DNA from: Bryoerythrophyllum caledonicum
Taxonomy: Eukaryota > Streptophyta > Bryopsida > Pottiales > Pottiaceae
Length of the DNA stretch: 64,000 nt
Direction: 5' to 3'
Assembly (NCBI GenBank): GCA_963971425.1
Contig: OZ020519.1
Location: 264,028 to 328,027 of the forward strand
The notes below the pieces were generated by a model, which saw only the letters and a program-made list of their open reading frames with translations, made no database searches and was not told the DNA's origin. A program made the position numbers and the translations under genes. Below are positions 1 to 31,664 of the stretch, in pieces (the stretch's first letter is position 1; each line of letters begins with the position of its first letter).

Positions 1-1085
1 GTACAAATATAGTACAAATTAAACCTCTTAAACGCCTCCAAATACTACAATGGGCGCGACTTTCGAGGCTCCTAAAGCCGCGCGTGTCACACCACCTGCC
101 ACGCTTTAGGAATGCTAAAAATATTCATGTTTATACTCAATGTACACAAGGCAAATTGGATCCCAAAGAAGGGTTGACTTTTACCACTTTTTTGGTACAA
201 TAGGTTGTCCGAAAGTGCACCCACCTTAGTGTGCTTCTACCCACGGACTTGGTGATTTCTAGAAGAGCGCTTGTTTTGAGGAATTGGAGGTCGAGATACA
301 CCATGGAGCTAGAGGATTTCTCACAAGGTATCAAGTTACCCCCATTCTCTCTCATCTTCACCGAATTTGAGAGTGAAGGCTTTTTGTTCCACACCACATG
401 GAAGTGGGAGGTAGGCACCTGGCGAGAGCGGGCTAGTAGTGTGTGGGACTCACTTACCATGGAGCTGCTCGCCTGGGAAGTGTCACCAACCATTTACGCA
501 CCGGAGATGAAGCGCACCCATGAAGCATGGAGTTTCTTTGAGTGAATCCCTTAACTCCCAACCTCGATACGTGGAAGGGGCCCGGTTTCACTCGGAGAAA
601 CACCCCTTTGCAATTGGTGTCCATGTACAGGTGTTGTCCAGAGGAGGTTGTCACTCACCCTAAAAGAGGTAGAAGATCCAGTCTTACCATTGGTGGAAGA
701 GGAAGAATTTTTTGACAAGCGTAAGGTGGATGATGTAGCACCAAATTTACTCAGGACTCAGGAGGCCACAAAAATCATACTTTGATTGGAAAGACATGGC
801 TTCACCATATGGAGGCGGAGAATGAGGGGTACGGAGATTTTTGGGTGCGACAAGCACCATCAAAGTTGATGACTTTAAGAAGAAGTTCACCATGTGGTGT
901 GAACTCCAGAAGTCCCGTAATTCCAATTCAATCCATACATGGTTTGGAGGGCATTGTTTGGGTGTCTGGAGGAGGCTCCAGTAGCAGATTATGGAGTATT
1001 CAAGGAGGCCCATTTTCCAAAAATTATGGCCTAGAGAGACTTCTACGCACCGAACTACGTGGATGTATTCAGTGGAGCATGAAAG

Positions 1086-1790
1086 GTGACATCACCACTC
1101 TTGTCTAAGAGGAAGAAAGAAGAAGGCAGGAGCACTGTGGAGGATACAATGCAACCAGGGGAGCTGGTAATCCATCCACCCCCATTCAATTCCACAATGA
1201 GGTTGTTTGTGCAACTCAACAGAGACTATCAAAGGCAACGGGCGGATAAAATAAGGACCCTTTGTTCCTTCACACGTGGAGGTGACGAGTCGTTGAAAGA
1301 GGCTCATGCGAGATTAAAGAAACTAATCTCAGCCATTCACAGAGTTACAGAACAACAGGCAGTGCAACGTTGATATAGTATCATGAACAAAGAATTGAAG
1401 ACCTTGGTTTGCAATGTCGCGTTGCAATTGAAAGTGTCAACTACCAATGATTTGTTTTTAAAACCTCAAAGCGGATTGCAATCAATTTACTAGAAGAGAA
1501 GGCAACGATGAGATTTCTTAAATGTGAAGAGAAGGTCCCGGAGAAGGTTAAAGAGGCCAAGGTGGTTGTTCCTTCACATACCCCACACACGAATGCCTTG
1601 TGCTTCAATTGTAGGAAGCCATGACATCAGAGGAAAGATTGTAAAAAAAAAAAGACTTCCACATCTCAGGCTGGAGGTTTCAGGGTTTAATTGTGGTACC
1701 AAGGGGCATGCGGAGGTCAACTGTTGGAAGCTTCAGCCCGAGTTGAAGCCTTCTGGTAGCAAAGGAGCTAAAACATGATACAAGGAGAAG
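1086..1790 (+). pseudogene. Retrotransposon gag remnant with two zinc knuckles
   Basis: A gag-like charged helical stretch (about 1190-1375) is followed at about 1600-1740 by two CCHC-type zinc knuckles. The first reads CFNCRKP, then a stop, then HQRKDC; the stop TGA fits a CGA to TGA change. The second reads FNCGTKGHAEVNCWK, with its first cysteine apparently lost. Such knuckles bind retroelement RNA during particle assembly. Stops and frame changes throughout show it is not functional. Confidence 0.7.
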
Positions 1791-2408
1791 GAGTCCAAAG
1801 CCATTGGAGGGAAAAAGAAGAGTTGAAAGGCCAAGTTCACGGAGTTGGAGGCAAAGATGGAAGCAAGGAGTGCAAACACTACTGTGAAAGGTGACAATCC
1901 TCAACTAACTCCTAGTTTTCATGCTCTGGGTGGCTTAAGTTTCGTGGATGATGAATTTGGAAAATTTATGTTGAGTGGGATGGCACTTGCCATCAAGGAT
2001 GTCACACCGGAGGCCTTTGCCCGCACACGGAGCCAGACACCAATTTCTAGGGAGGTTCCACGTGGAGCTAGTTCAACTTTGGATCCTCAGCATGACAAGG
2101 ACAACCGGCAAGCACGGTTGCCCCAATCCTTGAGCTTGGAGGAAATGGTGCCCACGTCATCCATGGTGCTTCAAGTTTTCAACCACGACCGGTGGCGACG
2201 TCCAAATGACCACCACCGCAAGTTGGAGTACAAACGGGAGTTCATGAGGTGATTAGGGAAGCAGCAACCTCGGTATGTCAAGCTTCTTTGTTCTTTGCTA
2301 AAGAGTTGTCACATGATGGCTTTAGTGTGGAAGAAGTTTTCAAGCAGGCGGCTTTAATGTGTAAGTTGTACAACTCCACAAGTGTTAATGCGTTGAAGAC
2401 GGAGATGA

Positions 2409-2960
2409 TTGAGGGCCGAAGCGGAGGCAAAGGAGAGCCAAAGTGACAATGTGGAGAGGCTGCTTTTAGCAGCCATGTATGTCAAGACAATGGCCGCCAG
2501 ACCTGCGATCGAGAGGTCATCCATTACAAATGGTGTGGTGGTGGTTGACGATTTCCAGGGTATTTTCCAACTTGTTGTGCCTAAGAAGGGGATTTTTGTA
2601 CCTCAATGTGTGCGTTGGAATTTAGGAGCTCAACCTTTGATGCTGAGAGCATCTATTATTGAAGGATTGGGTTTGACTGGGGATACTTTGGAAAAGTGTC
2701 CATGGGAGGTACAAGGCACGTTGTAGGCATCACAAGAGCTGAGTTGGTGTTACAACTCAATAAAGATGATGTCGTGGATACAAGCTCCATGAAGGTGAAA
2801 GCGATTGTCACGAAAGCCAAGTCACATGATATCTTGGTGGGCTCGGCAGTGCTATACCCAATGAGATTTACCTTGGATTTCTAGGAGGAGTCAGTAAGAT
2901 ATAGACCAAGACGACAAGTAGGAGATGGGCGGAAGGCTCAACTGCCAGCTCGATTTGTTT
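2409..2960 (+). pseudogene. Retrotransposon aspartic protease remnant
   Basis: The segment NLGAQPLMLRASIIEGLGLT (about 2618-2680) matches the flap-and-active-site region of gypsy-type retropepsins, where D-S/T-G is expected. Here the position reads N-L-G, so the catalytic aspartate is lost. It continues, after a one-base frame change near 2690, as GITRAELVLQLNKDD and AKSHDILVGSAVLYPMRFTL up to 2881, then a TAG where a tryptophan (TGG) is plausible. The later part is in the same frame as the methyltransferase and RT, supporting one polyprotein. Confidence 0.65.
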
Positions 2961-3298
2961 GGGTTCTTACTGGTAACCTTGCTGAAGTGTTTGCCTTCTG
3001 TGGATGTATGAATGTGGAACCTTCATGGTTTTAGGCAGGTTTTGAGAATTCCACTATTGCTAACCTCACTTCAAAGAAAGTGGATGTCCATATGAACAAC
3101 ACAAGTGATAGAGAGGCAGAGAGATATCAACATGGGATCGAGACGGTGTGGAGCAACACCATCTAGTTGCGGCAGGTCGTCGAGTTAGTAGTGGAAGAAG
3201 CATGGCAACATTCTATGCTACTACAAATGCAACAAGAGCCCAAACTTGAGCAAGACCAATGACCTCCTCTTGACACGTCTATCATCCATTGGAAGGCA

Positions 3299-4310
3299 TC
3301 AATGGATGGCATTGTATTGTTAGAGCTCTTTGGAGGCATTAGTATAAGATTGGTGGTTTTTTTACAAGTAGGGATCAAGGTTAAGCGCTACATTTGCATG
3401 GATGTGGATGAAGCAGCAAGGCAGGTGGCCAAACATCACTCACGGAGACCAATGACACAATTTCCAGAATAGTTGGCCACTAGTGCCATCAAAATTTCTT
3501 TTTCTACACTTGTGGATGATATTTCTTTGTTACCGGATGATAACATTCACACTATGGACCATGTTGACATTGTCATTGCGGGATGGCCTTCTCAAGGCAT
3601 GTCTATGGCAGGTAATTAGAACGGGTTGAAGGACTCCCATTCTTCCAGATTCTTTGACATGATTCGAATGCTACAGTTGCTTCAAACTTCTGAGAAGCAA
3701 CCGTTGGGTAATATTGTGGAAAACGAGCCAGCGGTAAGCAGGTCGAGGTCCAGGACATTGGAAAGTATGCACCGCATTCATCAGACTCTGGGTTTGTCAA
3801 TGTTGATTGATGGGGCTGGAGTAGGGTCACAAGCACATCGACCACGGTTGTGGTAGACAAACTTGGCACTGGTAGAGTTGCTACAATTTGTAGTGGGTCG
3901 GGTTAAATGCCCGGATGTGTGTATGAGTGATATTTTGGTACCATGGCACGTGTAGCACAATGACTAAGCATCATTGGCATTGGTTAACCGCAAGGGGGAA
4001 CCACGTAAGGCCTTGCCGGCGTTGATTGATTTTACACAGTCTTATGCTTTCAAGGTTAATGGACTTGGGCTTGTATGGCATTCATTGTCACAGGAGATGG
4101 TGGAATTCAATGCAGATGAAAGGGAAAGAGCCATGGGATTTTCCACTGGCACCACGAATCTGTCTGGAATTTCAGAGCAACAAGGACAGTTTTTACTCGA
4201 TCACATAATGGATTTAAATTGCCTGACTTGGATTGTATTGTTGGTGGTTGCCGAGCAAAAGCGTTTAGCTTCTAGCTTGACTAGTTACATAGTCGATTAT
4301 GAATTGCGGG
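3299..4310 (+). pseudogene. Cytosine-5 DNA methyltransferase domain inside the retrotransposon Pol frame
   Basis: Conserved C5-methyltransferase motifs appear in order in one frame. Motif I (AdoMet binding) is LLELFGGIS at about 3322. An acidic motif II region reads RYICMDVDEAARQVA. Motif IV is IAGWPSQGMSMAG at about 3580, where the catalytic Cys of PCQ is replaced by Ser. Motif VI is NIVENEP at about 3710, normally ENV. Motif VIII is GSQAHRPRLWW at about 3825. Motifs IX/X are ADERERAMGF and LLDHIMDLNCLTWI at about 4110-4235. In-frame TAG codons occur after FPE and after AGN, both explained by CAG to TAG. The domain lies between protease and RT and is in phase with both. Captured C5-methyltransferases in retrotransposons are known from dinoflagellates and charophyte algae. 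Here the enzyme is dead by motif IV and by stops. Its lineage (DNMT3-like or other) cannot be decided by eye. Confidence 0.85.
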
Positions 4311-4625
4311 CGGCCAGAGAACCACTTGCCTCTGTTAGGATGACAAGCGAAATGGTTGGGGGCGAGAGGGCCTTGGCACCTCATCCATGGACCATGTGGG
4401 GTACTGCAAATATTTTTCAATAGCAATCAAAGGTGGAGAAGCTTGCTCCAAAGGAACCATAAGAAGCAGTGACCAAGGAAACTTGGATACCAATAGTTGG
4501 CCTTGCAAATAGAGCAGTAGAAGTAGAAGAACAAGACTTTCTCAAGGAGTGTATGGATTGTTTTGCGTTTAATTTGCACAATTTGGGAGTATTGAAGGGC
4601 CAAGAGGTACGTATTAAAATGACAG

Positions 4626-5473
4626 ATGAAGCACAAATTTAATCGGAAGCCATGCAAGTATAGCGTCGTGGAACGAAAGTTGATTCGCGCTCATACGGAG
4701 GAATTCGTGGCTACAGGGCTAGTGGATTGGCTCCATGGGATTTTGAGTATGCATCGGCGACGGTTATGCCATCCAAGAAGAATATCTATGGTATTTGGAC
4801 TAAAAAGAGGATGTGCGGTGATTATAGGAGGATTAATAGATTCACTAAATCAGGTCATTATGCCATGCCAACTCCAGAGGAGAATTTTGAGGCCATTGGT
4901 CATGCCAAGATATTTGGTACGTTGGATTTGTGCTCTGGATATTACCAGATGGAACTGAGAGATGAGGACAAGGAGAAGACCGCGTTCTAGGGCATTGATA
5001 AGGGTAGGAAGGATTGGTTGATCCAGTGGAAGTTCTTGCCATTTGGATTGAAGAATGCACCAGTAGAGTTCTAGAGGGCTATGGACCGGGTATAGTCGGG
5101 CTTGGACTTTGTGAGATGCTACATTGATGATATTATTCTCTTTATCAAGAATCGACGACAATATAGACTACATTTGATGGAGGTGTTTGCTAAGTTAAGG
5201 CTCCACGGTTTGAAAATGCACCCTCGTAAGTGCAAATTCTTCTTCAATTGTATTGAGTATTTAGGCCACATGATTTATTCAAGTGGATTGGGTGTCGTAG
5301 CTAGCAAGGTAGAAGTGGTGATATCTATTTCCAGACCACGAGATGTTAGTAGGCTACGGGCATTTTTAGGCTTGTGTAACTATTATAGAAATTTTGTAAA
5401 AGGCTTTCAGTGCTCTTGCAAAGCCATTGACCATGTTGACAAGGAATTATTAACCTTAGATCTGGACAGATGA
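4626..5473 (+). pseudogene. Retrotransposon reverse transcriptase remnant
   Basis: Typical Ty3/gypsy RT blocks are visible: KKNIYGIWTKKRMCGDYRRI (4770-4830), FGTLDLCSGYYQMELRDEDK (4915-4975), FLPFGLKNAP (5034-5063), the catalytic RCYIDDIILF with an intact YIDD box (5115-5145), and LRAFLGLCNYYRNFVKGF (5355-5410). Stops after KTAF, after PVEF and after MDRV are all TAG, as expected from TGG or CAG. A one-base shift near 4640-4720 separates the first block from the rest. Confidence 0.9.
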
Positions 5474-5499
5474 GTAAGAGACAACCTCTCACCAATTGA

Positions 5500-5910
5500 A
5501 GGACCGTTTGGCATCAACACCGATACTTCAAAGGCCAATAACAGGGAGGACTTAGCAGCTAGATACACATTAGAGCGCGTTGGGGATTAGCACGGTATTG
5601 ACGCAAATGGATGATGATGGGAAGGAATTTCTGATTGCGTACGCCAATTGGTCCAACAACAATGCGAAAGCTTTGTATAGCTCGTATGAAGGGGAGTGTT
5701 TGGTTGCCACATGGGCAATTGCCCATTTCGGATGTTATCTTTATGGTAACAAATTTTTTGTTGGTGAGAGATCAACCGTTGAAGTGGTTGATGGGATCTA
5801 ACAAGCTAATAGGGAAACTATGGCGGTGGGCCTTGATGTTGATGGAGTATGACTTTAAGGTAGTTCTCAAGGCAGGGTAAGTGAATATGGATGCTGACAA
5901 TCTTAGCCAT
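5500..5910 (+). pseudogene. Retrotransposon RNase H remnant
   Basis: Reads GISTVLTQMDDDGKEFLIAY, then YSSYEGECLVATWAIAHF, then a frame change into LVRDQPLKWLMGSNKLIGKL and LMLMEYDFKVVLKAG. These match the RNase H domain of gypsy Pol (E and D metal ligands visible, followed by the usual D-x-L-S-H ending as ADNLSHNP at about 5895). It follows directly on the RT. It is frame-shifted and not functional. Confidence 0.8.
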
Positions 5911-6048
5911 AATCCAATTCCAAACTAGGAGGACGTCACATGCGTTAGATGGCACGGTGAGGGTGAGGCCGATTCGTGTCCAAGGTAGCATTGTTCGGCA
6001 TTTTTAGGAGTGTTGGCGATGCTTTGAGATCCCACTGGGGAAGCTACT

Positions 6049-7285
6049 GTGGCCATGGTAGATGAGGATAGAGGTGAGGAGTCTAGGGGCGGTAGAGACA
6101 TCTTCAAAGACTCGAATGTGATGCAATTTCTAAAGGATGGAGAAGCGGTGCGAACATGGTTTGCTAACAAGAAAGATAGGGTCTTACAAAGAGTCAAACG
6201 ATTCGTGTGGGAGAGGACTCACTTGTTAAGGTGTGGCTGTACGGTACAAAGACAATGGTGCGGGCTCTAACAGAGAGGGTGAAGCTCATCAAGCATGCAC
6301 ATGAGGATCTTGGATGCTTTGGAGTGCGGAGGACCTAGTAATTTGCTGAAAATTCACTATTGGTGGCGAGGGATGGAGTCACAAGTCCAAGCATTGATTG
6401 CCCGATGTATGGTATGTGATCGTGTGCGAGCGTCTTTTAACACTCTGATGCCACAATTGCAACCATTGCCAATTATGAGCTTAAAATGCAGGTAGAGGCT
6501 AGAGCTTGGATTTTACAGGACCATTGCCAGTGACACCTTGACACAACAAGTATGTGTTGGTGATCATCGAGCATTTCTTGAAATGGATAGAGTTGGTGGC
6601 ATCGCCTGATAAGTTTGGTGAGGGGGCCGCTTATTCTTTTATTGATTGTGTTTTGAGTCGCTTTCGAGTACTTGCGGAAGTCCTCACAGACCAAGGCAAA
6701 GAATTATTGGATAAGTTTCAAATGTTGTGTAGGTAAGCAATGATTGATCATTGCACTACTTCAAGGGATCATCCCGAAGCAGATGAATTGGCAGAGCGCA
6801 TGGTGCAAACCACCAAGAAGAGGATCCAGATGTACAACTTGAAGAAAGGACATCACCATGATTGGGATTTGTAGTTACCGAGGATAGCAATGGGCTATCT
6901 GTTTAGCAAATAAACATCTCTGACATCTTTTTCACCTTGTTATCTATTGTTTGGAAGGCACCCAATTTTGCCGAAGGCCATTCAAGCAGATGTTAACAGT
7001 ATGTTGGCTAACATGGACAATCCAGACACGTGGGCTCAAGTGTGTGAGCAACGTGTAGATTTGTTCAAAAGGGTGATGGCTATGGCATTGGAGAACCTCT
7101 CCATTGCTCAACATTGGGATACGTTGCGCTATGCTATAATACGGGGAGGTGGTTATCGACCGCAAGCGTGGCGTTCCACGCTTGGAGACTATGTGTATCT
7201 GCAACAAGCAGCGCCCACCACCTTGGATATGACAGCAGGACGAGTAATTTTGAGAGTTCATGAAGTGAAGGACTCAAGGGTGTAA
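6049..7285 (+). pseudogene. Retrotransposon integrase remnant
   Basis: The N-terminal HHCC zinc region is seen as HAHEDLGCFG followed after a shift by IHYWWRGMESQVQALIARCM and VCDRVRASF (6285-6435). The DDE core appears as YVLVIIEHFLKWIELVASPD (6545-6607) and VLTDQGKELLDKFQ (6680-6720). A later stretch, SRDHPEADELAERMVQTTKK (6760-6820), carries the E-containing block. The C-terminal part, ENLSIAQHWDTLRYAIIRGG and STLGDYVYLQQAAPTTLD, ends at about 7285. Several frames are needed. Confidence 0.85.
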
Positions 7286-7394
7286 GTGTTGGAGGGTTGT
7301 GATGGTAAGATGTGGAAGGATCACACCCACAATTGCACGCCTTGCCGCTTGCCACACATTGATGGGACTGTACACCTTAGCCTTTCTTACATGT

Positions 7395-7560
7395 GTACTG
7401 GATTGCGATGATGGTTATGTGGTAGTTCCAAACGGGCTACCATAATGGTTATTTGTGACTTATGTTCTACAGGGTGGCATTTGGAATGCTTAACTCCACC
7501 TCTTTTAAAGATACCAATGGGTCAATGGTCTTGTCGAGAGTGTTTAACTCGTTGAGGGTC
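7395..7560 (+). pseudogene. PHD finger at the C-terminal end of the retrotransposon Pol
   Basis: One frame reads a Cys4-His-Cys3 pattern: stop-W-L-C, 11 residues, CDLC, four residues, H, two residues, C, 14 residues, CREC. The core is ICDLCSTGWHLECLTPP and the end is GQWSCRECLTR. The spacing fits the canonical PHD finger; only the first cysteine is missing, replaced by TGA, one base away from TGC or TGT. It follows the integrase C-terminal segment at the distance expected for a terminal domain of the same polyprotein. PHD fingers usually read histone H3 tails, so a targeting role for integration is plausible but inferred. Confidence 0.7.
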
Positions 7561-8661: not shown

Positions 8662-11356
8662 TCACAACGACAACAGCGAACGATTCTTAATTGCTTTCCT
8701 GCGCATACCATACAAAGCTGGGAGAGGAGGAATGGTTGGGGGCCGAATCAAGGGCGAGGCCTCACGCTCTTGGGACTTCTCTTTCACCACATCCACATTC
8801 ACTACTGTTTTCTTGGCAGCCACGTACCTTTTCTTCGGCGCGTTCCGGAATACTTGTGGCAGCAACATGACATTATTTGAGTTGTCCTTGCGTGGCGGCT
8901 CATTCAATGACTCTACAATTGTAGTAACTCTCTCATGCGTATGGACCTCCTCTGGCTCACCATTTGATGAGACATGGCTCATTTCCCAGGACGTCTGGGT
9001 GACAGCCTTGGCTTCGGACTCTTCAGTTGGGTTTGGGGCGGTTGCATCCTCCTCCATTGGTTCTGCTTCATCGTGCAATGGCATTCTTGTGGGCTGGCCC
9101 TGTAAGTCCATGAGAGCTTCTGCAGCATGGGCACCACCAACAATGTCTTCCGGGTCGGGTTCCGATCGCCTGGCACGTTTGGTGGCTTCCTGCTTCTTCA
9201 CCCTCTTCCTCAGCTGCAAGGCTTTGTGATGCGCGCAGAGCGTGTGGTCCTGCATGGCCATCAGGGGACACCGCCACTTGCGAGCATCGTCCTTCCGGGA
9301 ACATGGCACGCCCTTCTGCACCCCAGTCTCGGCCACAATTCTGGCCTGCATGGCCTGCAAGGAGCCTCGAATGGTCCTGGACTGGGTATCTAGTGCCTCA
9401 TCGTTGTCTGACGAGGCCTTCCTCTTTCTGCTTGTTGGCAATGGTGATCCTCCTGCAGGACCTACAGTAGCATCTGCTCCCGTATCCGAAACTTCCACGT
9501 TGCCCATGCTCTGTTGCATCTTCTCAAACTCAATGGCCGACTGCGTCAGAACTGCTTCGACGCTCCTCTCGTACGCTTTCCGCCTCGTCTGAACGCCTGA
9601 GAACACCGCACGTTTGTAACGTGGAGGACACTAATTCTGTTAGTTTAAGCCATGCTTTGTAAGAACGGCATCTGTTACTTGAGCCAGGAACTAAGGCCCA
9701 GATGAGTGATAACAGACGTCTGTTCACCATCACAACGACTACCTTTGCGGTCAGAGAAACACACCTTCATGGTTTTGCAGAGGCAGGGCACTGGGCTGAG
9801 CAGCAGCAGAATCGGTGGGTAGAACGGCAGTTGTTGTCCGGAAAAACGGTACATTGTGGCGACTAGAAGAGGTAGTTCTGGGACTGACGCCCAGATTGGG
9901 TTTCAATGAACCAGAGCTTCTGCGCTTGGGATGATGTTGCACAACCTGATCACGCAGAAGGTATTGTCCCTTCACTTCGTCGAAGTGCCGATTGTTCTTC
10001 AGGTGATCCCTCACTTGCTTCTTCCAGTCACTCGCAAGGCTCGGCAACGTTGTCTGCTTCTTGAAGCTCGTGAAGAGTTCCTTTAAGGACATGCCTTCAC
10101 AGCCAGCAGCCAAAAGCTGCAGATACAAAGTGTGCAGGACCGACTCTTCTGGCGCCGTCAAAGGGTGAGTATCTTCCTCGTCTTCGCCGTCTTGATCCTC
10201 CATCATCAGTTTGCGCTTCAATGTTCCCATGTCCGAGGATGGCGTCTCCTTCTTCACGTGAACCGGTCGCAGCTCCTCAGTTGTACACGCCCGGTTGGTT
10301 CCATCGCTCTGCAAACGCATCAGATATACTCCAATTATGAAATGCATCAATTTCCCAACCAGGATTAGTTTCTGCAACGAACTCACACATCGCGTCCGAT
10401 GATCTGCCCTCAATGATAATCTGACTGAATAAATCCAAGGGCTCAGATCATGGAGACAAAGAAACTGCACGACTAATTAAACGACTTTCTGGCTGATGTT
10501 AAATTATTATATTATCTGAAGTGAAAATTCACTACTTCCACCCAAATCTTCACTATGATGCACGCTTAACCTGAGGAAAGACCCATCTGACGAAGCGAAC
10601 CGGTGTTGAGAATGCCATTCAATCAATCTAAGACACAAGATATCAGAATCGTACAAGAAAAGCAGAGAAACGTTAATTGGTATAGTTCTGGATGCAATAT
10701 GAACTATTTAGCTGCAAAATGTGGCCAGAAAGTCATAGCCCCCTCCCAACGACGATTAGGGTTATCGGAATGTATTTTCCCAATTCCACTCACGAACTCG
10801 AATAAAGTTTTGAATACGAAGAATGTATCAAAGCGCTCAACATTAATTCCGCCCCGCATATGATTCAAAAAATATAAAAAACAATAATATGAAGTACCTC
10901 AAGACGTGCCAGGGGAAATTCATCGCCTCCCTTGCGTACGACAGAGTTGCCGCGTCTCACGTAATGCCGCGTGACATGGTCCTCACCATCTTGAACCTGC
11001 CAGAGATGCTCCACGGACAACGTCGAGCCCTCCAGCTCCGCTTGGCCAACAACATCTTCTGGCTCCAATTTCGGGGGCACGGCAGGGAGTCCCTTGCCAT
11101 GATCGACATCATCGGGTTGCAGCATCGTCGACACGCCCGGAGAGGCGCTGTGCCTAGAAATGGTCGTCCCGCTCTGATGATCCAACCCCGCTCGGCCCTC
11201 CATGCCCGACGACGTCGTGGTCACGTTGGAGCGGTCATCGCCGACGTCCCATGAACCAACCTTGAGCAATGGCGGCCCCGCGGCACCACGCACGACGTTC
11301 TCCTCGCTCACGAGGACTGCATCTGTGCTTCGGTGGTGTGGCTTCCTGATCCTCAT
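8662..11356 (-). CDS. WRC-domain nuclear protein, paralogue 1
   Basis: Three exons on the minus strand: 11356-10898, 10308-9765 and 9596-8662, giving 645 residues. The protein starts MRIRK, a start seen in plant WRC-domain proteins. Exon 1 ends after a VTRHYVRR block shared with the neighbour at 14793. Exon 2 holds a conserved helical block (about residues 207-275) with LYLQLLAAGCEGMSLKELF and HLKNNRHFDEVKGQYLLRDQ, winged-helix-like in pattern (possibly HARE-HTH type; inferred). Exon 3 has the zinc motif around CSRKDDARKWRCPLMAMQD, with C433, C444, C455 and H458 (spacing 10, 10, 2), the WRC/INO80D-like signature. It ends in a basic tail, RRKAIKNRSLLSL. WRC domains occur in plant nuclear DNA-binding or chromatin proteins; the exact role is unknown. 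Confidence 0.85.
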
Positions 11357-14792: not shown

Positions 14793-17352
14793 TCAGAATG
14801 AGAGAAGGGACTTATTCTTGACAGTCTTTCTCCGGAATCCATACTGCATTGGGAGGGAAGGGATGACAGGTGGGGGCTCAATTATATAATCCTTGAGTGG
14901 TACTGGTCCATTGACTGCAGTTTTCTGTGCGGCAATATGTCTTCTTTTCGGCGCGCTTGTGAACAGATGCTGCAGCAGCTTCTCCGATGTTCGATCCTTC
15001 ATCACTGAAAGATGATCAGCTAGTCTATGCCCATGAGCAATGGCCTGTGTCAAATACTGACATGCTGCGTCTCTTGGCACGTGACTACTCTTTAACGTGA
15101 CAAGGGCTTCCACCACATGATCGTCCTCATCCACCGGGCTCGCAGTAAGGTCTGGCATGCTAAATTCCTGCAAGCTCTTGCCCAATTTCTCACTTTTGTT
15201 GATCCTCACGTCCTCGGCGTGGCGAGCCTTCTTCCTCTCCTTCAAGAAGATGTGGTGCTCACACAGGCTGTGGCCCTCCTTCGCCATCAATGGACACTGC
15301 CAGTTCCTGCGGTCGTCTTTCCGGGAACACCGCGTCCCAGTCTGCACCCCGGATTCTGCAACAATCTTGGCCTGCAGTGCAATCAAAGCGCCGGGAGTAG
15401 CTCTCCCATTCTTGATACTCTGAAAGATATCCACATCGCTGCGACGTAGCAAGGACTTTCTCTTCCTCCGTGATGACTCCAACGATGGAACTCTTGTTGT
15501 AGATTGAACTATCGCTGTCACGGGTGTATCATTGAATGGTCTGAAATCTGTCAGCGTCAATACTACTTTTGTTGCAGCGCCATCCTGTAACTTTTGTATC
15601 TTCTGGGGCTCCATAGCCGACTCACTCAGCGCTTCTTCAATGTTTTCATCCACTTTCCTTAAGTCGTTCTGGATTGCTGTCAAACCATTACCGTGACGGA
15701 ATTATTCTCAAACTACACTAGTATCAACGGCAGGGAATTATTCCTGCCACTTGTAATCCCATTAGAAAGGTACGAAAATAGGAATAATTTGATCTAGCAC
15801 ATTGAAGACGTTTCACGGAACACATGTACCTTCATGTATGTCGTTAGAGTCGCAACTGAAATGCAGCCCAGCAGTTGGTAGCTCGAACGGCTGCACATGA
15901 TCTGATCTCGGCTTGCAGCGTGCACCTCTGTCGAAACCTGCGGCCATGGGCAGGTCATTGAGCACGACAATTTGCTCTCGCAGAAGGTAGCGTCCCTTCA
16001 CTTCGCCAAAATACGAGTTGCTCTTCAGATGCGCTCTCACTCGCTCCTTCCAATCCACGCCCAGGCTCGGCACCGACATCTGCGTTTTGAAACTGGCAAA
16101 CAGCTCCCTCACTGTCAGCCCCTCCTTCCCCGCCGCCAAGAGCTGCAAGTACAACGCATGCAGCAGCGACCCTTCTGCCTCCCTGGATGGGTGGTGCACC
16201 ATGGAATCCCCTTTCGAAATCGTGCACGTGGAGTCATCGGCCGCCCTTGACAAATCCGTTCTCAAACTCTCCTGAATTTGATCCGCACCAACTTCCTCGC
16301 CGCAGGACGGCTTCACAATGTGACACTTAGCCTGCACAGAAGCAAAGAAATCAGTCTTACCCTGATCGCCTCGTGCCACATCCCACTCTAAGAAACAGAG
16401 AATGCCCCACGAAGCTTTCTTTCGGAGTAATATAATATGTTGCTAACAAGTTTATGAGAATGCATAGACTTTCCAGGACTTCGTTGTATCGGCGGTTTCC
16501 AGAGTGGTTGACAACTTTCTAGACGCAAACTGTAAGTGCAGTTCAAACATCTTAGGTTTCTTGATATAATTTCTGTGTTTCCAACATGCTCTATTGTGTA
16601 GATGCAAGAGGGCATGTTAGATAGATTCCATGAGTTGAGAAGAACAATTATATCAACTGTTGGTCAAAGGGATCATAGCAATGAGAAAACCGCCAACATC
16701 ACGCCTGCAGGCACCCGGCGGCTAAATCACCATAAGCTAACTAGCGATCCCAAGAATCCCACAGAAATGCAAGCTACACGCTGCACATGATTGAAGAGGA
16801 AGTACTTGGTCGCGCATCACCGTACCAACAAATCGCATCGACACCAAACCGATCGAGACAGACATCATAAGATGATGAAATTAGGTTTCCATGGCCATGG
16901 CGTACCTTGCCATGAGTTGGCTCACATTGCAGATCAGCGCCATGATCCCTCCTGATCCGCCGCACATAGTGCCGAGTGACCGCGACGTGCGCATCATCGG
17001 GGGAAGACAGAATGGCATTGTTATCATAACTGTCGTCGACCGGCTTAATTAAGTCGCCACTGGAATTTTCCGAGACGCTTTCGGGCTTCAACGACTCGTA
17101 CAACTCCTGGAACCCGGCGTCGGGCTCCTGCATGGACATGGTAAGAAAGTCCACCCAGGACCCCTCCTCGCGCTCCTCCTCCACCTCCGCTGCTGCTGCT
17201 GCTGTCATGGCTGCCTGGTGCTGCAACAGGTAATTGTTCTCGCAGTCGCGGTCCCATCCCAGCCTCCACACGCTGAACACCGACGTCTGCTGCGACGATG
17301 TCTCAAACCCTGGCACCGCGCTCGCCCGCCGCACATGCTTCCGGATCCTCAT
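14793..17352 (-). CDS. WRC-domain nuclear protein, paralogue 2
   Basis: Three exons on the minus strand: 17352-16906, 16331-15830 and 15676-14793, giving 610 residues. Intron positions and phases are the same as in the gene at 8662, and the splice into exon 3 falls at the same HEG/HEA codon, so the two are tandem duplicates. It starts MRIRKHVRRASAVPGFET and shares the VTRHYVRR block, the helical block LYLQLLAAGKEGLTVRELF with HLKSNSYFGEVKGRYLLREQ, and the zinc motif around CSRKDDRRNWQCPLMAKEGH with C433, C444, C455 and H458, at exactly the same residue numbers. The W-R-C of paralogue 1 is W-Q-C here. Exon 1 has a poly-Ala and acidic stretch not present in the neighbour, showing fast divergence outside the domains. 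Confidence 0.85.
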
Positions 17353-19370
17353 CGACGAGGACTATCTAAATCACCTCCGCTACGCCGCAGTTGTGGCTGC
17401 TGCTGCTCCGATCATCCTGCGAACAAACACACACACACACAGCGCCCGCTTGGGCATGTCATGTTCGATGTAACCACCTCCACAACAAACGTCCAACGAA
17501 AACGATGAGATTGAACCATAGGATTCCCTCAAACAATCTCATGCTTAGACGTGGGGAGATAACTTTAGATAAATTTCCTTAACTTGGCCATATTTGTTAA
17601 ATTGAGACATTTCACCAAGTTTGAGGCTTCCATCTCTACTGCTGTCAAGTTCAAAGTGACTCATTTGAGGCTCTGAAATGTCTCAATTTAATGAGATGTG
17701 GTTGTTGTTGCGTGTATGGTGGAATTATTGTAAGTGGTGTTTTTGACTTGATAGTTTTTCACGAATTATACCACCTCATTTAATTGTTGAGTGTGGAATT
17801 AAATTATATGTTGTAAGGGACTTTCTTGTAAAGGTGAGACACGTGTGCTTTTAGAAAGTTGGAATTTATGTGGGTGGAACAATATGGGATGAGGGTGAGG
17901 TTGTGGATGATGGGGATTCAGAAAAAATTTGTTTGTTGTTGGGTAGGGTTTGATTTAAGAGATTAGTAGTTAGTTTTGATATGATGGTGGAAATGAAAGG
18001 TTTGAGGTTGTAGATAATTTAGTAGAAGGATTGTCATAATATTGGAGTGGCAGGTGGAATATGGGATGTAAATATGTGATGGTTCGTTACAATGTAATTG
18101 TAATGTCTTTTAGGTTATGATTGTGAAAATCTCAAGGTATATTACATGAATTATCAAATGGTAATATGATTTTTTTTCTGTAAATGAGTGAACAAGGTAT
18201 TGAGAGAGAGAGAGTGCAAATCTTGGATGCTTGATTTACCATCAAGTAGATTAATGAGAAAAATAGACAAGAAGATTTGATAGTCAGATGTGTTATATAA
18301 AACACTATAGATGCAGATATTGGAAGAGTCAGAGCAAGTAAGGTAGATTCATATCAACACATGATTGTAGTTGAGTAATGATCAAAGTATCCCTACTAGC
18401 ATTATTAATTTTGCATTCATTTTGGTCATCTAAAACCATTGTCATGAATGTATATATGGCTTGGTTTGCATAAGTATTATAAGCATCATCCATTTGTAGA
18501 TGAGCTTCATGTGCTCCAAATTCTAAAATATCATCAAATTTATTAAATGGTTGCATGGTTGCATTACTATCTTTGATTTACTTGGTTAGTGGTAGTTTTA
18601 AAATGTACAAACCATGCTCCAAGCTAGTTCAAAAGGATAGTACATTTATTCAAGTTGGCTCCTAATTTGAAATTTTGTTTGTATAAAATCCAAGTTCATT
18701 GCACAATAAAGCAGCCAATGTTACAAATTGTGTAAAAAAACTTCATCTACAATCAATTGTTTTTAAAATAGATTATTTTTTTTAAAAAATCCACTATATT
18801 TACAAACCATGTCTTTTATTTCTTATAGTGCATCTTATTACTTCAATTATTATGGGCATATTATTAGAGCATCATTATATACTACATATATTTAATAAGA
18901 ATAATCATGAAAGCACATAATAATTACAAATATGTATTATTCTTGGAACTTATTTGCATTCAATTTGGTTATAGGTTCCTGCTTTCATTGAATAATTTAA
19001 TGCCAGATTGAAGCGATGCAACAATTTTAGAATCAATTATGTTGTTGTATATTTAATGAATATTGTAATAAAATCTTCCTTAGAAATATCGAAAAAATAT
19101 TTTCATAACTTAAAATAAAATATGAAATGTTCTTGTAAATGTATTTATTATATAAAATTGATCAATACTAAATACCTTCATGTTAATAATTGCTTAGAGT
19201 TTTTGTAAAATAGTATCACATTAATAATTCAATGAGTGAAACGTTACATTTATTAATGTTGTGTAATTGTTATTAATTGTATACTAATTGATGTAGGTTG
19301 CTTAATCTCCTTTATAAATATTATACTATTTTTACATAATTTACTAAATTATATCCACTTTAAGTAAATA
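17353..19370. other. AT-rich gene-poor region
   Basis: Begins with the upstream region of WRC paralogue 2, including a short CA microsatellite at 17427-17441, then becomes strongly AT-rich to 19370. A short GA repeat lies at about 18203. I find no gene, RNA gene or clear repeat boundaries. Confidence 0.5.
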
Positions 19371-20551
19371 CCAGTGTTGGTCTGTTATTAGGGTTCCCGG
19401 CGGGTATCTAGAAGGGTATCAATAGGGTATCTCACGACCCGACCTGAGGAGTATGTGTGCTTGGAAAACCCGAAGCTTCTTCATACTTCGTCGTGTATGT
19501 GCATTTGTGCAACTGCGCTTCGTACCAGATTGGAAGGGTTTCAAGAGAAGCATACAATTATTGGAACCAGCCTCTGCATTTGTGAGAGCAAGTACGGTAG
19601 GTTTTGTGATGTGCCGAGTTCAGGGTACTTGTTAATGCAGCAAAGAGTGCGCTTCAATGTGGAGAGGAGTGGATGTAATTGAAGAACGCGGAGTGGTTGT
19701 GAATTGTAATGCATTTCCAGGGATCAGCAACGGCTTGAAAAGGGTAACCCTTCTTCTCTTTGTGTTGTGTGCTGCGTTTCTGTGAAGGAAGTGGAAATCT
19801 GCTGTTAGGGTTTGTGCTCTTAGCTTAGGGTTTTGGGTTGTGATTGAGCTTGCGCACCATGTCGTCGTCCATTCAACCCTCGTGTGCTGAAACTGCAGAT
19901 CCGACCGAGAGCATTGACTTGGAGAGCGACCCGAGGCATGACGATGTGTTGCGGCCAATTTCGGAGGGTTTGGCAGCAGAGTCGGAAGCAGCTTGGCGGG
20001 CTTCATATGTGGCGTTGAGGGCGAATGCGAAGTTTTGGACACCCTACCATCACCCTACCATCGGAGATGGAACGGGTTGACGAAGCTGAAGCTGAGATCG
20101 AGGAAGCTGGTTACTTCGAAGAGCAGGCTGAAGATGAGGAGTAGCATGTGAGAGTTGTTTGCAATTTTGTATTGGATTCGTGGCAGTTGTAGGCAGCACA
20201 GGATTACAGTAGCCAGAATGACGTAGAGCAGGGGTCAGCGATACAATTCCCAAATGCGAACCTTCTTTAAAATGTACTCTCCGGTGCCGGAGCTTCTGGA
20301 AATCTACAGTGTGATTGTTGTGCTAAAACAGATCCTACCCGAGTTGATAGTTGTCTGGTATCTCATGTGCTGATATTGGTATTCTTATACTGTTTGGAAT
20401 TTGCTGAAAATGACATTATTCATATCAGTACTGTATTTGTGAAAATGCATTTTTTGCAATACCATGTACCCTACTAATCCGGGTTTCTAAGGAATCTTAA
20501 TTATTTAGAACCGGCTGGTATGACCGAAATTAGATAACAGACCAACACTGG
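19371..20551. mobile_element. hAT-like element with 18-bp terminal inverted repeats
   Basis: The left end CCAGTGTTGGTCTGTTAT (19371-19388) is repeated as an exact reverse complement at 20534-20551. CAGTGTTGG ends are typical of hAT elements. Counting from CAG, the flanking 8-mers are gtaaatac and gttatgac, identical at five of eight positions, compatible with a decayed 8-bp target duplication. Inside there is a short open frame at 19844-20080 without recognised similarity, so the 1.18-kb element is probably non-autonomous. It lies immediately next to the MULE coding remnant starting at 20554 and may have inserted in its 5' part. Confidence 0.65.
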
Positions 20552-23830: not shown

Positions 23831-25632
23831 GCAATGATGTCGTATTTATCAAAAAGGTCTACAATCTTAGATTGCTCAGATGTAGAGTTGCAGAGTCGTA
23901 GACGTGGACGTGAATTTAGTTCATGTACTTACTGAGTTTGTTATGATTTGTTAATTGGCGTACTTCACATATACTACCGTACGCAATGGAGAGTTTTGAA
24001 CTAGTTGAATTCAAAGTGGAGACTATCAACCTTTTCCAAAAATCCCTTTGGATTTATGTAAGTGATCCCATTTACTGCCCATGTGATGATCTTGTAATAC
24101 ATGGATGATACCCAAGTAATGCCTATGTGATACCCGTTATAAACCTAGGCAATACCCATTTGATACCTATGTGATACCCTGCAGTATACCTTGTGTCCAA
24201 ATTAGTGGATATTTATAAATAATATATTTTGTCGTGTCCAAACAAAAAGTTTAAACCTGATGTACAAGATTTGAATGTGATCATTCTAAATTTAAAGATA
24301 TTAGATGTACGTTATAACCAAAGCACGAGAAGAGAAGAAGGCCTAATAGTCCAAAAAAATTGTTCCACAAGTGACCACGGTTATAGGGTATTTACTTAAT
24401 TTAGCAATTAGAAAAGAAAAATGCTCCAAAATGCTCCAAATTGCCAAAAATTTCACATTTAAAAAAAAATGTGATTTTTTTCCAATTTTCAGAGTTTTGT
24501 ACGCTCGCCGCTCGCCGCTTGCCGCTCACCGCTCACAAGATAGCGTCGCTAGCTCCCAAGATAGTGCCACTCGAAATACAAATGATATGTGTTCTAATTT
24601 ATTCAATTTTTGTAAAAATAATGCGACTTCTTAATCAATACTGAACAATGAACTAATTATATCAATATATGAAAAAATTCCTATGTGAAAAATAATACTA
24701 TCCACTGAGTCTAACGAAGGCTTGTGTATGCTAAATGAAACACAATTTCAAAATAAGTACATTCAATTGTTATTATTTCCAAAAAAAACATGTTCTTACA
24801 TTAAAGAATGAAATCATTTAGTACAAAAATTATATATGAAAGAGCAATATGAAGACGGCCATGGGACACTATTTAAAAAATTTAAACATGCATAACCTTC
24901 AGAACTTAAAAGTGGGTTTACATGTATTCACATGAAAATGGTCACAGAATAAACTGGAAAAGGGGGAAAATAGACTATAGCCATATTTGAATTAATAAAT
25001 TGTCTAAGTGCAATAGTGCAAATCACTTCCCTCCACGTTCATGTATCCCTTGTGTTTATTCTAAATATCAGTAAATTTCAGTAAAGGAATACAGTAGAAA
25101 GTGAATCTTTGTCCGAATAGTTTATTAATATTCACCATTCAACCAGTGAATATTATGTCCACAAAAGGCACTGAAGAAGTACTAAATGCTTCACTAAATG
25201 CACAAAAGTGAAAATTGAAGAGGATAGATATCTAATTACTAAATGTTAAGGTACATGTTGCATGATGAATGATAGACTATGCAACAAACTACCAGGTTGA
25301 GAATTTCAAAGTAGTTTGTTCAACCTAATAAAAATATTATGAAACATTTTAAATAATGTCCAAAAAAATACTTTAAATTAGAATCCTCTTTTTATTGTTA
25401 ACAAAATAAAAGGATTAAATGAAACATTAAACTTACTCAGGCAATGTCCTTAAATTGCATCATAAAGTACGACATAATAATACTCTTTCCTTCCAAAATA
25501 TAATTCAAAACTTTTATTTATTCTTTTATTTATTGTTCAAAAATTACATTTCTAAGTAAAATCAAATCATGTTTTTCTCTTGCATTTAATGAAATCTAAT
25601 TAGACATAAAATTCTTAGTATTCTTCTCAATG
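23831..25632. other. AT-rich spacer with degenerate short repeats
   Basis: No gene. At about 24060-24190 there is a loose tandem of gtgatacccat/taatgccta-type units, akin to the minisatellite at 26850. At about 24505-24540 short gctcgcc/gctcacc units repeat. The rest is AT-rich without visible structure. Confidence 0.45.
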
Positions 25633-25634
25633 TA

Positions 25635-26591
25635 CAGTGGGGTGACGCTTAAAATGGCATTTTTGCATTTTGAAATTTCACTTCTGCCAACTTTGACACC
25701 CTAACGAGGATTGAAAATTTGTTATTTAACCATGAAACTTTTGGCACAAAGTCACCTCTATGTTGATAACATATGTGCCAAATTCTGAGGCCAAAGATAT
25801 ACATAAAAAAAGATACTTAAATCTACCAACATGTATAGTTGTGAGCCATTCCTTAATGCCAACTTTGTCACCCTCCCTAGGGCTGGTTTATTATTTTAAT
25901 TTCCTTAAATTTTTTGCCACAAGATCACCTCTATCTTCAAAATATGTGTACCAAATTTAGAAGCCAGAAGATGAATAAAAAAAAGATATTGAAAATTGTT
26001 TCTCATAGTTACACATAATGGTAGATTTTGAATATTTTTTTTGTATTCATCATTTGGCCTTGAAATTTGGCACACGTGTTAACAACATAGAGATGACCTT
26101 GTGCCAAAAATTTAATGGTAAATTGCAAAAATTCAGCCCTAGAGAGGGTGCCAAAGTTGGCAGTAATGAAATGGTTTTCCGGATTGTTTCTCACAACTAC
26201 ACATGTTCGTAGATTTCATAAATCTTTTTTTCTCTAGATATTTTGGCCTTATAATCTGGTGCACACGTAATTAACATAGAGGTGGTTGCATGCCAATAAT
26301 TTCATGGGCAAAAAAAAAAATTCAATCCTTGAGAGGGTGTCAAAGTTGGTAGATGTGAAACTTTTCTTATAGCTACATATGATGATAGATTTTGAATATC
26401 TTTTTTTGTATTCATCCTGAGCTCTTGAAACTTGGCATACATATTTTCAACATAGTTAAGATAATCTTGTGTCAGAAATTTCATGTAAATTAACAAATTT
26501 TCAGCCCTCAAGATGGTGTCAAAGTTGACAACAATGAAATTACTTTCCCTAGGGAATCTACAAAAACGCCATTTTTAGCGTCACTCCATTG
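25635..26591. mobile_element. TA-flanked foldback element with TIRs and four internal repeat units
   Basis: Ends are cagtggggtgacgcttaaaa (left) and the reverse complement caatggagtgacgctaaaaa (right), each next to a TA dinucleotide (25633-25634 and 26592-26593). TA target sites and CAGT-type ends fit Tc1/mariner/pogo-like transposons. Inside, a unit of about 220 bp containing gccaactttg-acaccct, ttggcacaaagtcacctcta and gccaaa occurs twice in direct orientation (about 25684 and 25855) and twice inverted (about 26070-26170 and 26300-26525), so the whole 957-bp element can fold on itself. Short ORFs in it are repeats of each other in different frames, not genes. The family assignment is inferred from the ends only. 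Confidence 0.75.
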
Positions 26592-29745: not shown

Positions 29746-30915
29746 TAGGAACCAAGGACTAATCAAAGCCACATGGCTCAATTCCAAGTGATGATATGTA
29801 TAGGTTTGTATGTACGTTCTCAGCTGTATTTTGGGGTATAATTCTGGGAGAGGTTGAATATTTTCAAGTTTTCATTTGTGTAGAAGTATGGACATGGCAT
29901 GTTGGATAGCAATGTTGTTTATTTTTTTGAATGTCTTTTTAATTGGATTAACCCCTAAAGGACTCGGCCTTGTGATTCATCAAAACCACTCCAAAACTTC
30001 CACTTTAAGATGAGACATTATTAGACTTATTCAAACAAAGTTTTACTAAGTTTAATCGTTGAATCTTCAAGATAACAACTACAAGAAGACACCCTAAAAG
30101 TTTTGTAAACTTTGACCGTACAGATTGAAAGGTATATGTATTTAAAGAGTGCCAAATTGTTTTTCTCTATTGTGCCAGCACAAGTACAACGTGCTTTGAC
30201 TCAAGATAATGGCATAGTTTTCTATTACATATTGCATAAACTCAATGGATCTATATTCTACCCAGTGTTAAGTCATCGCACGCCAAAAATCTGAAGTAAT
30301 GGAGGTATTTACAATAAGAAAAATGGACCTGCAATGACTGGAGGTAAAGATAGTGGCCCTTTTTTCAGGAAAGCATTTTTTTAAAAATACGGAAATAATT
30401 TTTGGATCTAAAATCCTAGCGGTGAATAGGTTTATTGTGGCTTTTCTAACAATAGAAAAAATCTTAATTTCTATGCATTTTTAAGAGAAAACAATGAAGG
30501 TTACCAAGTACTTTCCTTCACTACTACGTGCCTCAAAGAAGTGCAATTGCCAACTCTACAGTTGCTTTAGCTCCAGCAATGATGACATTAAGGGGGTCAA
30601 CTTTCCATTCGAGGGCTCCAATGTCATTAATTAGTGGCTTGTATTTATTAATTTTGTTTTCAATTGCCTCCAGGTAAAATCTATCATTATAATATTTGAA
30701 TTCGATAAATTGGATTGCAAGGTTTGTATTTATTTGGTCCAATGGGGTCTTTATGTGGTAGTCCTATGACGCATAGTATGTCTGGTTAAAAATGCCTACA
30801 TATATGCTCGAATATACACGAACATGCTCAAATATTTACAACCTCGATACGCATGGGGCTTATTGAACATTGGACATTACCTTCAGTTTATGCTTTTGAC
30901 TAGGATGTTAACATC
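29746..30915. other. AT-rich spacer
   Basis: No gene, RNA gene or bounded repeat recognised. A 69-codon minus-strand frame at 30533-30742 has no similarity I know. Confidence 0.4.
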
Positions 30916-30918
30916 ACT

Positions 30919-31527
30919 ACACTAAAGATCGCATTTAGTGTATGGACACAAATAGTGTACTTACCCTACTACATTATTTGTGAATAAGTTCACAGTTAGT
31001 GTTAGGCGCCAATGTCATTAATGATACCCCCAATTAATCACATTCCCTTGACTTCTTCACATTTCCTCCCGGCCGTCATGGAATTATTCTCCTTGTTGAC
31101 TTCTTCTCATTCCCAACTCTATTTACACTCCCAACATTACTCTTGCATTCATTTTCCCGCAGCTTTTCTTCTACTTAACGAGAAATTTTGAATGGCCATT
31201 TCTTACCCATAATTTGTCCAAATTGGGCATATGAGGTGTTTTTTGGCATCTAAATTTTCTGTAGATGTCAGAAAACATCTCATATGCCCAATTCGGACAG
31301 TTTTTGAGTGAATTTTGCTCTTCCAAAGATTGTTGATTTTCATACATGGCGGACAACTGTTCACACACTAAATGTGCACAAGTAGTTCCCAATCTTTTTT
31401 GAAATTCACATATAGTGTAGTGTTTCACATTTAGTGTATTTTTATGACACTGCACTAATTGCTATTTGTACATTTAGTGTATGGATTAGTATTTAGTGTG
31501 CAATACACTAAATGCAATGTTTAGTGT
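30919..31527. mobile_element. TIR element with ACACTAAA ends and central hairpin
   Basis: The left end acactaaagatcgcatttag is matched by the right end read in reverse, acactaaacattgcatttag. Both sides are flanked by ACT (30916-30918 and 31528-31530), a candidate 3-bp target duplication. CACTA-type ends and a 3-bp duplication suggest a non-autonomous CACTA or similar element. The motif cactaaatg recurs many times near both ends. The centre is a long hairpin (31215-31299). Confidence 0.7.
31215..31299 (+). other. 38-bp hairpin resembling a small-RNA precursor
   Basis: Arms 31215-31252 and 31262-31299 pair over 38 bp with a 9-nt loop (aattttctg). As plus-strand RNA there is one A-C mismatch and three G-U wobbles; on the minus strand the three wobbles become mismatches. 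The arms contain attgggcatatgag and ctcatatgcccaatt. It sits at the centre of the TIR element at 30919-31527, so it may simply be the fold of that element. Expression is unknown. Confidence 0.7.
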
Positions 31528-31536
31528 ACTAAAATT

Positions 31537-31660
31537 AAGGGGTCTATGCAACGTCATAAGCAGACCCCTAGTGTTGCTAAAGTTTCTTTTATTAAAAAAT
31601 TTTACATTTAGCAACACCAAGGGGTTGGATTATGACATTGCTTAGAATCTTAGACCCCTC
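31537..31660. mobile_element. 124-bp foldback MITE
   Basis: The left arm aaggggtctatgcaacgtca and following agtgttgctaaa pair with the right arm tttagcaacacc and cttagaatcttagacccctc. AATT flanks both sides (31533-31536 and 31661-31664), a possible target duplication. It lies only 10 bp from the end of the TIR element at 30919-31527. Confidence 0.7.
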
Positions 31661-31664
31661 AATT

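What the first reader, a model, noticed from the sequence alone, without database searches (positions are those of the whole stretch)
3299..4310. Retrotransposon carrying its own cytosine-5 DNA methyltransferase
C5-methyltransferase motifs I, II, IV, VI, VIII, IX and X follow each other in the same reading frame as the protease end (from 2696) and the RT (to 5473) of a Ty3/gypsy Pol. The gene order protease-methyltransferase-RT means the enzyme was part of the polyprotein, not a nearby host gene. Retrotransposon capture of C5-methyltransferases is documented in dinoflagellates and charophyte algae; a copy in what looks like a land-plant genome would extend this or mark lineage continuity. An element that methylates DNA could silence itself or rivals, or limit damage to its host.
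Basis: partly seen in the sequence, partly recalled or inferred. Interest (0 to 1): 0.88.

Follow-up and report, generated by a model that had tools for sequence, protein, structure and literature searches.

The report
Retrotransposon carrying a DNA methyltransferase
A dead copy of a plant jumping gene still shows that its family carries its own DNA-methylating enzyme, placed just before a stop signal that looks leaky, and relatives of it sit in liverworts such as Marchantia.

Summary
Window ~826-7552 is a dead Ty3/Gypsy element (36 in-frame stops in nine matched stretches). Frame 2 encodes a C5 methyltransferase at 3266-4282 (PF00145, E 1.4e-7), between protease and RT; its catalytic Cys is Ser. 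Relatives show it is a real, conserved part of a family: 143 proteins match, with named proteins of the liverworts Calypogeia and Riccia, and of Marchantia polymorpha. A relative with open frames (L003) has Gag-protease-methyltransferase in ORF1 and RT-RNaseH-integrase-PHD in ORF2. Sequence profile and predicted fold are nearest DNMT3.

Known kind: KnitGypsy-Dnmt3 of Klebsormidium. Not shown: activity, readthrough, the window's host species, the number of captures.

The parts
826..1445 (+). Gag remnant (frames 1 and 3)
   Evidence: tblastn of Marchantia P0140 N-terminal part: 826-945 and 927-1445. A piece of L003 Gag is predicted to resemble retroviral capsid C-terminal domains (weak by Foldseek).
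1601..1740 (+). two zinc-knuckle remnants (approximate, by eye)
   Evidence: seen in the translations; no Pfam hit for the one piece tested. Relatives carry CCHC motifs here.
2433..2960 (+). aspartic protease remnant, frame 3 then frame 2; the active-site DSG is not kept
   Evidence: tblastn of P0120: 2433-2723 frame 3 and 2699-3646 frame 2; DSGV in P0120, DSGA in other relatives, NLGA in the window.
3266..4282 (+). C5 DNA methyltransferase domain, DNMT3-like; 5 in-frame stops and catalytic Cys replaced by Ser
4421..4429 (+). TAG-CAA-TCA: stop at the methyltransferase/RT boundary in type I (UAG-CAR-YYA) context, in frame 2
   Evidence: same 9-mer at the same place in L003 3489-3497; P0103 reads GIQ-Y-QSKMEN there; consensus read in PMC3542737.
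4481..5428 (+). reverse transcriptase remnant, frame 2
   Evidence: tblastn of L003 ORF2 4538-5428 and of P0117 4481-4822; RVT_1 hits, one above and two below the cut-off.
5400..5990 (+). RNase H remnant, frames 3 and 1 (right end approximate)
   Evidence: tblastn of L003 ORF2 residues 328-446 to 5400-5756 and 446-694 to 5755-6510.
6222..7400 (+). integrase remnant, frames 1 and 2 (ends approximate)
   Evidence: tblastn of L003 ORF2 residues 690-1034 to 6503-7543, 57% identity; Pfam on L003.
7409..7552 (+). PHD-finger remnant at the integrase C-terminus
   Evidence: translation; L003 ORF2 PHD, PF00628, E 4.3e-10.

Best explanation
It is a decayed copy of a Ty3/Gypsy LTR retrotransposon whose family carries a DNMT3-type C5 methyltransferase between protease and RT. 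Shown: the domain order, the DNMT3-like sequence and predicted fold, conservation of the catalytic residues in relatives, and an in-frame stop right after the methyltransferase in type I leaky context in the two elements whose DNA could be read. Inferred: translation mostly stops there, giving Gag-protease-methyltransferase in quantity; a small share reads through to give RT-RNaseH-integrase-PHD. The enzyme would then be packaged into the virus-like particle at near-capsid dose and methylate the element's new cDNA before or during integration, so that it arrives already marked, either passing as host DNA or limiting its own expression. The window copy is dead and CpG-poor, as expected if it was methylated after insertion.
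Against: No activity is shown here; for the nearest known element, KnitGypsy-Dnmt3, yeast expression gave no methylation and the authors call that inconclusive. The stop's DNA was read in only two elements; DNA of the other relatives could not be fetched. Eight related proteins (P0144, P0147, P0156-P0160, P0163) run into RT without a stop, so readthrough is not needed by the whole kind. P0103 has a Tyr in place of the stop. Gene models of Marchantia (P0143) and Riccia (P0117) join methyltransferase and RT, apparently through an annotated intron, so splicing is not excluded. TAGCARYYA as such is not rare (8 in the window, 3.9 expected). dN/dS could not be computed. CpG depletion does not tell self-methylation from host methylation.
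Confidence: 0.8

Rival explanations
1. A host methyltransferase gene or pseudogene inserted beside, or nested in, an ordinary Gypsy element, so that the order is accidental.
For: The window copy is badly decayed and cannot by itself show that one protein was made.
Against: 37 of 61 mapped relatives carry protease and methyltransferase in one ORF, L003 has open frames with the same order, and RT and integrase trees split the same way as the methyltransferase tree.
Confidence: 0.02
2. ORF2 (RT to PHD) is made by alternative splicing that removes the stop, or by reinitiation, not by readthrough.
For: Marchantia P0143 and Riccia P0117 gene models run from methyltransferase into RT with part of the tail missing; an intron is my reading, the gene structures were not seen.
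Against: ORF1 and ORF2 are in the same frame in L003 and window, the stop is TAG-CAA-TCA in both, and the two gene models drop different lengths of the tail, which looks like annotation artefact.
Confidence: 0.2
3. The methyltransferase serves a truce with the host: it silences the element's own and related copies after insertion, lowering damage, rather than marking cDNA in the particle.
For: CpG depletion of the window copy; a host-benefit option is discussed by de Mendoza et al. 2018.
Against: Inference: selection on the element to keep a self-silencing enzyme is hard to sustain at the copy level, and the position beside Gag and protease points to the particle.
Confidence: 0.25
4. The domain no longer acts on DNA in this family; it is kept as a structural or RNA-binding part, for example of the particle.
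For: In the other clade the PC of motif IV reads EC in 17 of 20, and in 7 of 55 on the window's side; KnitGypsy-Dnmt3 gave no methylation in yeast.
Against: Catalytic Cys, ENV Glu and the motif VIII arginines are nearly invariant, as expected for a working enzyme.
Confidence: 0.1

Closest known systems
KnitGypsy-Dnmt3 of the charophyte Klebsormidium nitens (de Mendoza et al. 2018, PMC5890265; abstract, passages and sections 10-11 read)
   Same: LTR Gypsy element with a Dnmt3-related methyltransferase in the Pol ORF; key residues conserved and purifying selection (Ka/Ks < 0.2) reported there.
   Different: Reported there only from an alga. The passages read give no position within Pol and no stop; its repeats are described as like those of DIRS. 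Its sequences were not obtained here, so whether it belongs to the window's clade, the second clade or neither is untested.
SymbioDIRS-Dnmt3 of dinoflagellates (same paper)
   Same: Retrotransposon with a Dnmt3-type domain; shown there to methylate CG de novo in yeast.
   Different: DIRS class, not Gypsy; reported there as an independent acquisition.
DNMT3A/DNMT3B catalytic domain
   Same: Best sequence and fold match; same motif order; motif VIII of AHR.R..W.N type.
   Different: About 24% identity; no known DNMT3 regulatory domain found by Pfam in L003 ORF1; fused to Gag and protease.
Tobamovirus type I readthrough (UAG-CAR-YYA; PMC3542737, passages)
   Same: TAG-CAA-TCA at the ORF1/ORF2 boundary; the window also has CAA before the stop.
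   Different: Sits between methyltransferase and RT of a retrotransposon; readthrough not measured. SIRE1 of soybean is recalled, not looked up, as a plant retroelement using this context.

Membership tests
C5 DNA methyltransferase, DNMT3 group | Motifs I-IV-VI-VIII-IX-X in canonical order | tested here: met
   Window read in order; relatives and L003 compared at key residues; not the rearranged DRM order.
C5 DNA methyltransferase, DNMT3 group | Catalytic Cys of motif IV | tested here: not met
   Ser in the window copy; Cys in 53 of 55 relatives on the window's side of the tree (1 Tyr, 1 gap) and 20 of 20 on the other. The family has it, this dead copy does not.
C5 DNA methyltransferase, DNMT3 group | Closer to DNMT3 than to other C5 groups | tested here: met
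Ty3/Gypsy LTR retrotransposon | Protease-RT-RNaseH-integrase order | tested here: met
   Window by tblastn; L003 ORF2 by Pfam. The L003 protease scores below Pfam's cut-off (20.5 against 24.3); P0156 and P0159 pass it.
Ty3/Gypsy LTR retrotransposon | Gag with capsid fold and CCHC knuckle | tested here: inconclusive
Ty3/Gypsy LTR retrotransposon | Flanking LTRs | tested here: inconclusive
   No repeat pair in the window; the 5' LTR may lie left of base 1. L003 ends overlap by 127 bases, as a one-LTR circle or collapsed repeat would.
KnitGypsy-Dnmt3 kind | Dnmt3-type domain inside Gypsy coding region | tested here: met
KnitGypsy-Dnmt3 kind | Common descent with the Klebsormidium element | not tested
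Type I programmed readthrough | UAG-CAR-YYA with the downstream ORF in frame | tested here: met
   Two elements, window and L003.
Type I programmed readthrough | Measured readthrough | not testable with these tools
   needs a reporter assay

The most novel reading that the evidence does not exclude
An old lineage of Gypsy elements, shared by bryophytes and charophyte algae, treats a DNMT3-type enzyme as part of the particle: it sits on the Gag side of a leaky stop, is packaged at near-capsid dose, and delivers pre-methylated cDNA that the PHD-finger integrase places by reading histone H3. The domain was either captured twice by related elements or moved once within Pol (before RT in one clade, after RNase H in the other).
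Probability: 0.3. Interest if true: 0.88.

Novelty: new variant of a known kind. Interest (0 to 1): 0.72.

Why it matters
Why a transposon would carry the enzyme used to silence transposons is an open question, and the cases described in the paper read here are in algae and dinoflagellates. Finding the family in Marchantia polymorpha, a plant with good genetics (recalled), makes the question testable: one can look for the protein in particles, break its catalytic residue, and read cDNA methylation. [quoted passage not shown] bryophytes are land plants but not tracheophytes.

Tried and rejected
Viral contigs: the single-sequence query found nothing; the profile query found only two distant methyltransferases, in L001 and L002, whose other ORFs look phage-like by eye; the L003 ORF2 query found nothing. 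The DNA pattern for the stop context gave 4 contigs, none with a match to L003 ORF1 or ORF2 at E<=1e-3, so chance.

LTR search in the window: none found. No RNA family at gathering threshold and no tRNA in the window. No further copy of the element in the rest of the window by blastn at E<=1e-3.

Host gene beside an ordinary element: rejected by the relatives. Rearranged DRM type: rejected by motif order. Chance leaky stop: unlikely (40 of 20,000), though TAGCARYYA is not rare over 64 kb (8 seen, 3.9 expected) and the exact 9-mer occurs once where 0.95 are expected, so the argument rests on position, frame and the match in L003; the same 9-mer also occurs once on the minus strand of L003.

Single or double capture: left open. 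The trees have no outgroup, and long branches on the second side are flagged. Own-genome search: not answered in 15 tries.

Corrected on checking: a first count of 39 stops used the wrong frame for a short stretch; choosing the frame per stretch gives 36. P0168, without a visible layout, falls on the second side of the tree and was moved there for the residue counts.

Full report
Observation. The methyltransferase is there. Reading frame 2 of 3299-4310 with X at its five stops, Pfam gives PF00145 at E 1.4e-7 and NCBIfam dcm at 1.4e-8, below that model's cut-off. A protein search returns 143 relatives at E<=1e-3, 120 listed. Of the 120 listed, four bear an organism name: Calypogeia fissa P0085, P0106 and P0114 and Riccia sorocarpa P0117, at 40-46% identity, on contigs of 13-49 Mb. 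Most of the others come from JGI metagenomes, the closest groups at about 56-71% identity.

The element. tblastn with relatives outlines a Gypsy element from about 826 to 7552: Gag, protease, methyltransferase, RT, RNase H, integrase, PHD finger. It is dead: 36 in-frame stops in nine stretches with the frame chosen per stretch (39 in the coarser cut; 1446-2263 not covered and the boundary TAG at 4421 not counted), several frame changes, protease active site and methyltransferase catalytic Cys lost. CpG observed/expected is 0.54 in the element, 0.80 in window 8600-64000 and 0.78 in the coding part of L003; TpG/CpA is 1.32, 1.21 and 1.22, as expected if this copy had been methylated.

Relatives. 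Searching with the L003 methyltransferase region gave 35 proteins at E<=1e-8, with only the 7,994 candidates sharing most words scored. Five are named Marchantia polymorpha (P0140, P0142, P0143, P0145, P0146); P0140 (Mp_4g09160, 1,278 aa) has CCHC, protease and methyltransferase. One is Calypogeia (P0138), and one is the zygnematophyte Closterium (P0155) with only part of the domain. Searching with P0147 gave 38 at E<=1e-6. Of the 61 proteins P0121-P0181 mapped and recounted, 37 show protease before methyltransferase, 9 show methyltransferase before RT, and 20 show methyltransferase before integrase with no RT between, 14 of these with RT and/or RNase H upstream; P0150 and P0168 show neither. 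None shows both layouts.

Trees. The methyltransferase tree (76 rows, with window and L003) splits at 100/98 into 56 rows, which include all rows with protease or RT-downstream layout, and 20 rows: the 19 long enough of the second layout, and P0168. RT (23 rows) and integrase (26 rows) trees split the two layouts at 100/100 and 100/99. The window groups with P0008 in the methyltransferase tree (94/82) and with L003 in the RT (100/99) and integrase (97/90) trees, where few rows of its kind were available. Roots are midpoints; with no outgroup, one capture with a move, or two captures, remain open. Long branches are flagged on the second side.

The stop. ORF1 ends soon after the methyltransferase in L003 and in relatives of several sub-clades. 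Among the 102 proteins (those with a recognisable motif X, not of the second layout), C-terminal triplets recur: GIQ 10, SIQ 3, GIT 2, ATK 4, SSN 4; but YVE 4 and VAE 3 recur too, at earlier points, and many others are fragments. In L003 the junction reads AAG-TAG-CAA-TCA; in the window CAA-TAG-CAA-TCA at 4421-4429, in frame. PMC3542737 (passages) gives UAG-CAR-YYA as the type I readthrough consensus of tobamoviruses, 0.3-5% readthrough for leaky contexts, and says that adenosines just before the stop help. P0103 has a sense codon at the site (GIQ-Y-QSKMENIAPKE) and matches the window's Q-stop-QSKVEKLAPKE, which marks the window's stop as the conserved one. The window has 69 residues between motif X and the stop, against 136-143 in most relatives ending in GIQ or SIQ, so it lost about 70 codons there. 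An in-frame TAG-CAR-YYA within 80 codons arose in 40 of 20,000 random sequences. Against: P0144, P0147, P0156-P0160 and P0163 run from methyltransferase into RT without a stop, and the P0143 and P0117 gene models join the two.

Mechanism. Most likely the methyltransferase is made with Gag in quantity, packaged, and acts on the new cDNA; RT, integrase and PHD come from the minor readthrough product. Packaging and action are inference. The L003 PHD finger is nearest by sequence to CHD4, PHF12, KMT2D and UHRF1 PHD fingers, which suggests, no more, that the integrase reads histone H3.

Literature. De Mendoza et al. 2018 (PMC5890265; abstract, passages, sections 10 and 11) describe KnitGypsy-Dnmt3 in the Pol ORF of a Klebsormidium Gypsy element, and Symbiodinium elements; SymbioDIRS enzymes methylate CG in yeast, KnitGypsy-Dnmt3 gave an inconclusive negative. 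PMC12344493 (passages) says some DNMT3 members are embedded in retrotransposons (LTR Copia and DIRS), as reported in streptophytes and dinoflagellates. [quoted passage not shown] PMC12477816 (passages) reports a ParB-methyltransferase protein in a brown-algal DNA transposon, a different enzyme type. I found no paper describing such elements in bryophytes, the readthrough layout, or the second position; the searches were in one open-access library, and most hits were seen only as listings, so absence from print is not proved.

Host. The window carries exons of a ureide permease and a phosphoacetylglucosamine mutase, and two WRC matches below Pfam's cut-off, which point to a land plant. In the methyltransferase tree the window's 16-row clade joins a 12-row clade that holds the Marchantia and Calypogeia rows (joint support 100/99), which would fit a moss, but no species was identified and the own-genome search did not complete.

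Noticed in passing
P0151-P0154, P0164-P0167, P0169-P0177, P0179-P0181: A second set of 20 Gypsy proteins carries the methyltransferase before the integrase, in 14 of them visibly after RT/RNase H; most have a C-terminal PHD finger. On that side of the tree the PC of motif IV reads EC in 17 of 20, the Cys kept.
   Followed up: partly
window 7409-7552; L003 6459-6605: PHD finger at the integrase C-terminus; no PHD match in P0156, P0159 and P0160, whose integrase is followed by 55-84 residues.
   Followed up: partly
window 8662-9606 and 14793-15683, minus strand: Two related WRC-like ORFs (35% identity over 246 residues) about 6 kb apart, each with an upstream ORF (9751-10470 and 15813-16379; 62% identity over 76 residues): a tandem duplication.
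   Followed up: partly
window 56039-56686 and 51007-51627, minus strand: Exons of a ureide permease and of a phosphoacetylglucosamine mutase.
   Followed up: no
window 18001-20000, 24001-26000, 30001-32000: A+T-rich stretches (GC 0.31-0.34 per 2 kb) against 0.39-0.57 in the other 2-kb steps.
   Followed up: no
P0171, P0175: Carry PF01585 in the precomputed Pfam list (G-patch, name recalled) besides RT, integrase and PHD.
   Followed up: no
L003 (CADCWO010000201.1): A retrotransposon contig, inferred eukaryotic, filed in a cyanobacterial MAG: contamination of a public genome record.
   Followed up: partly
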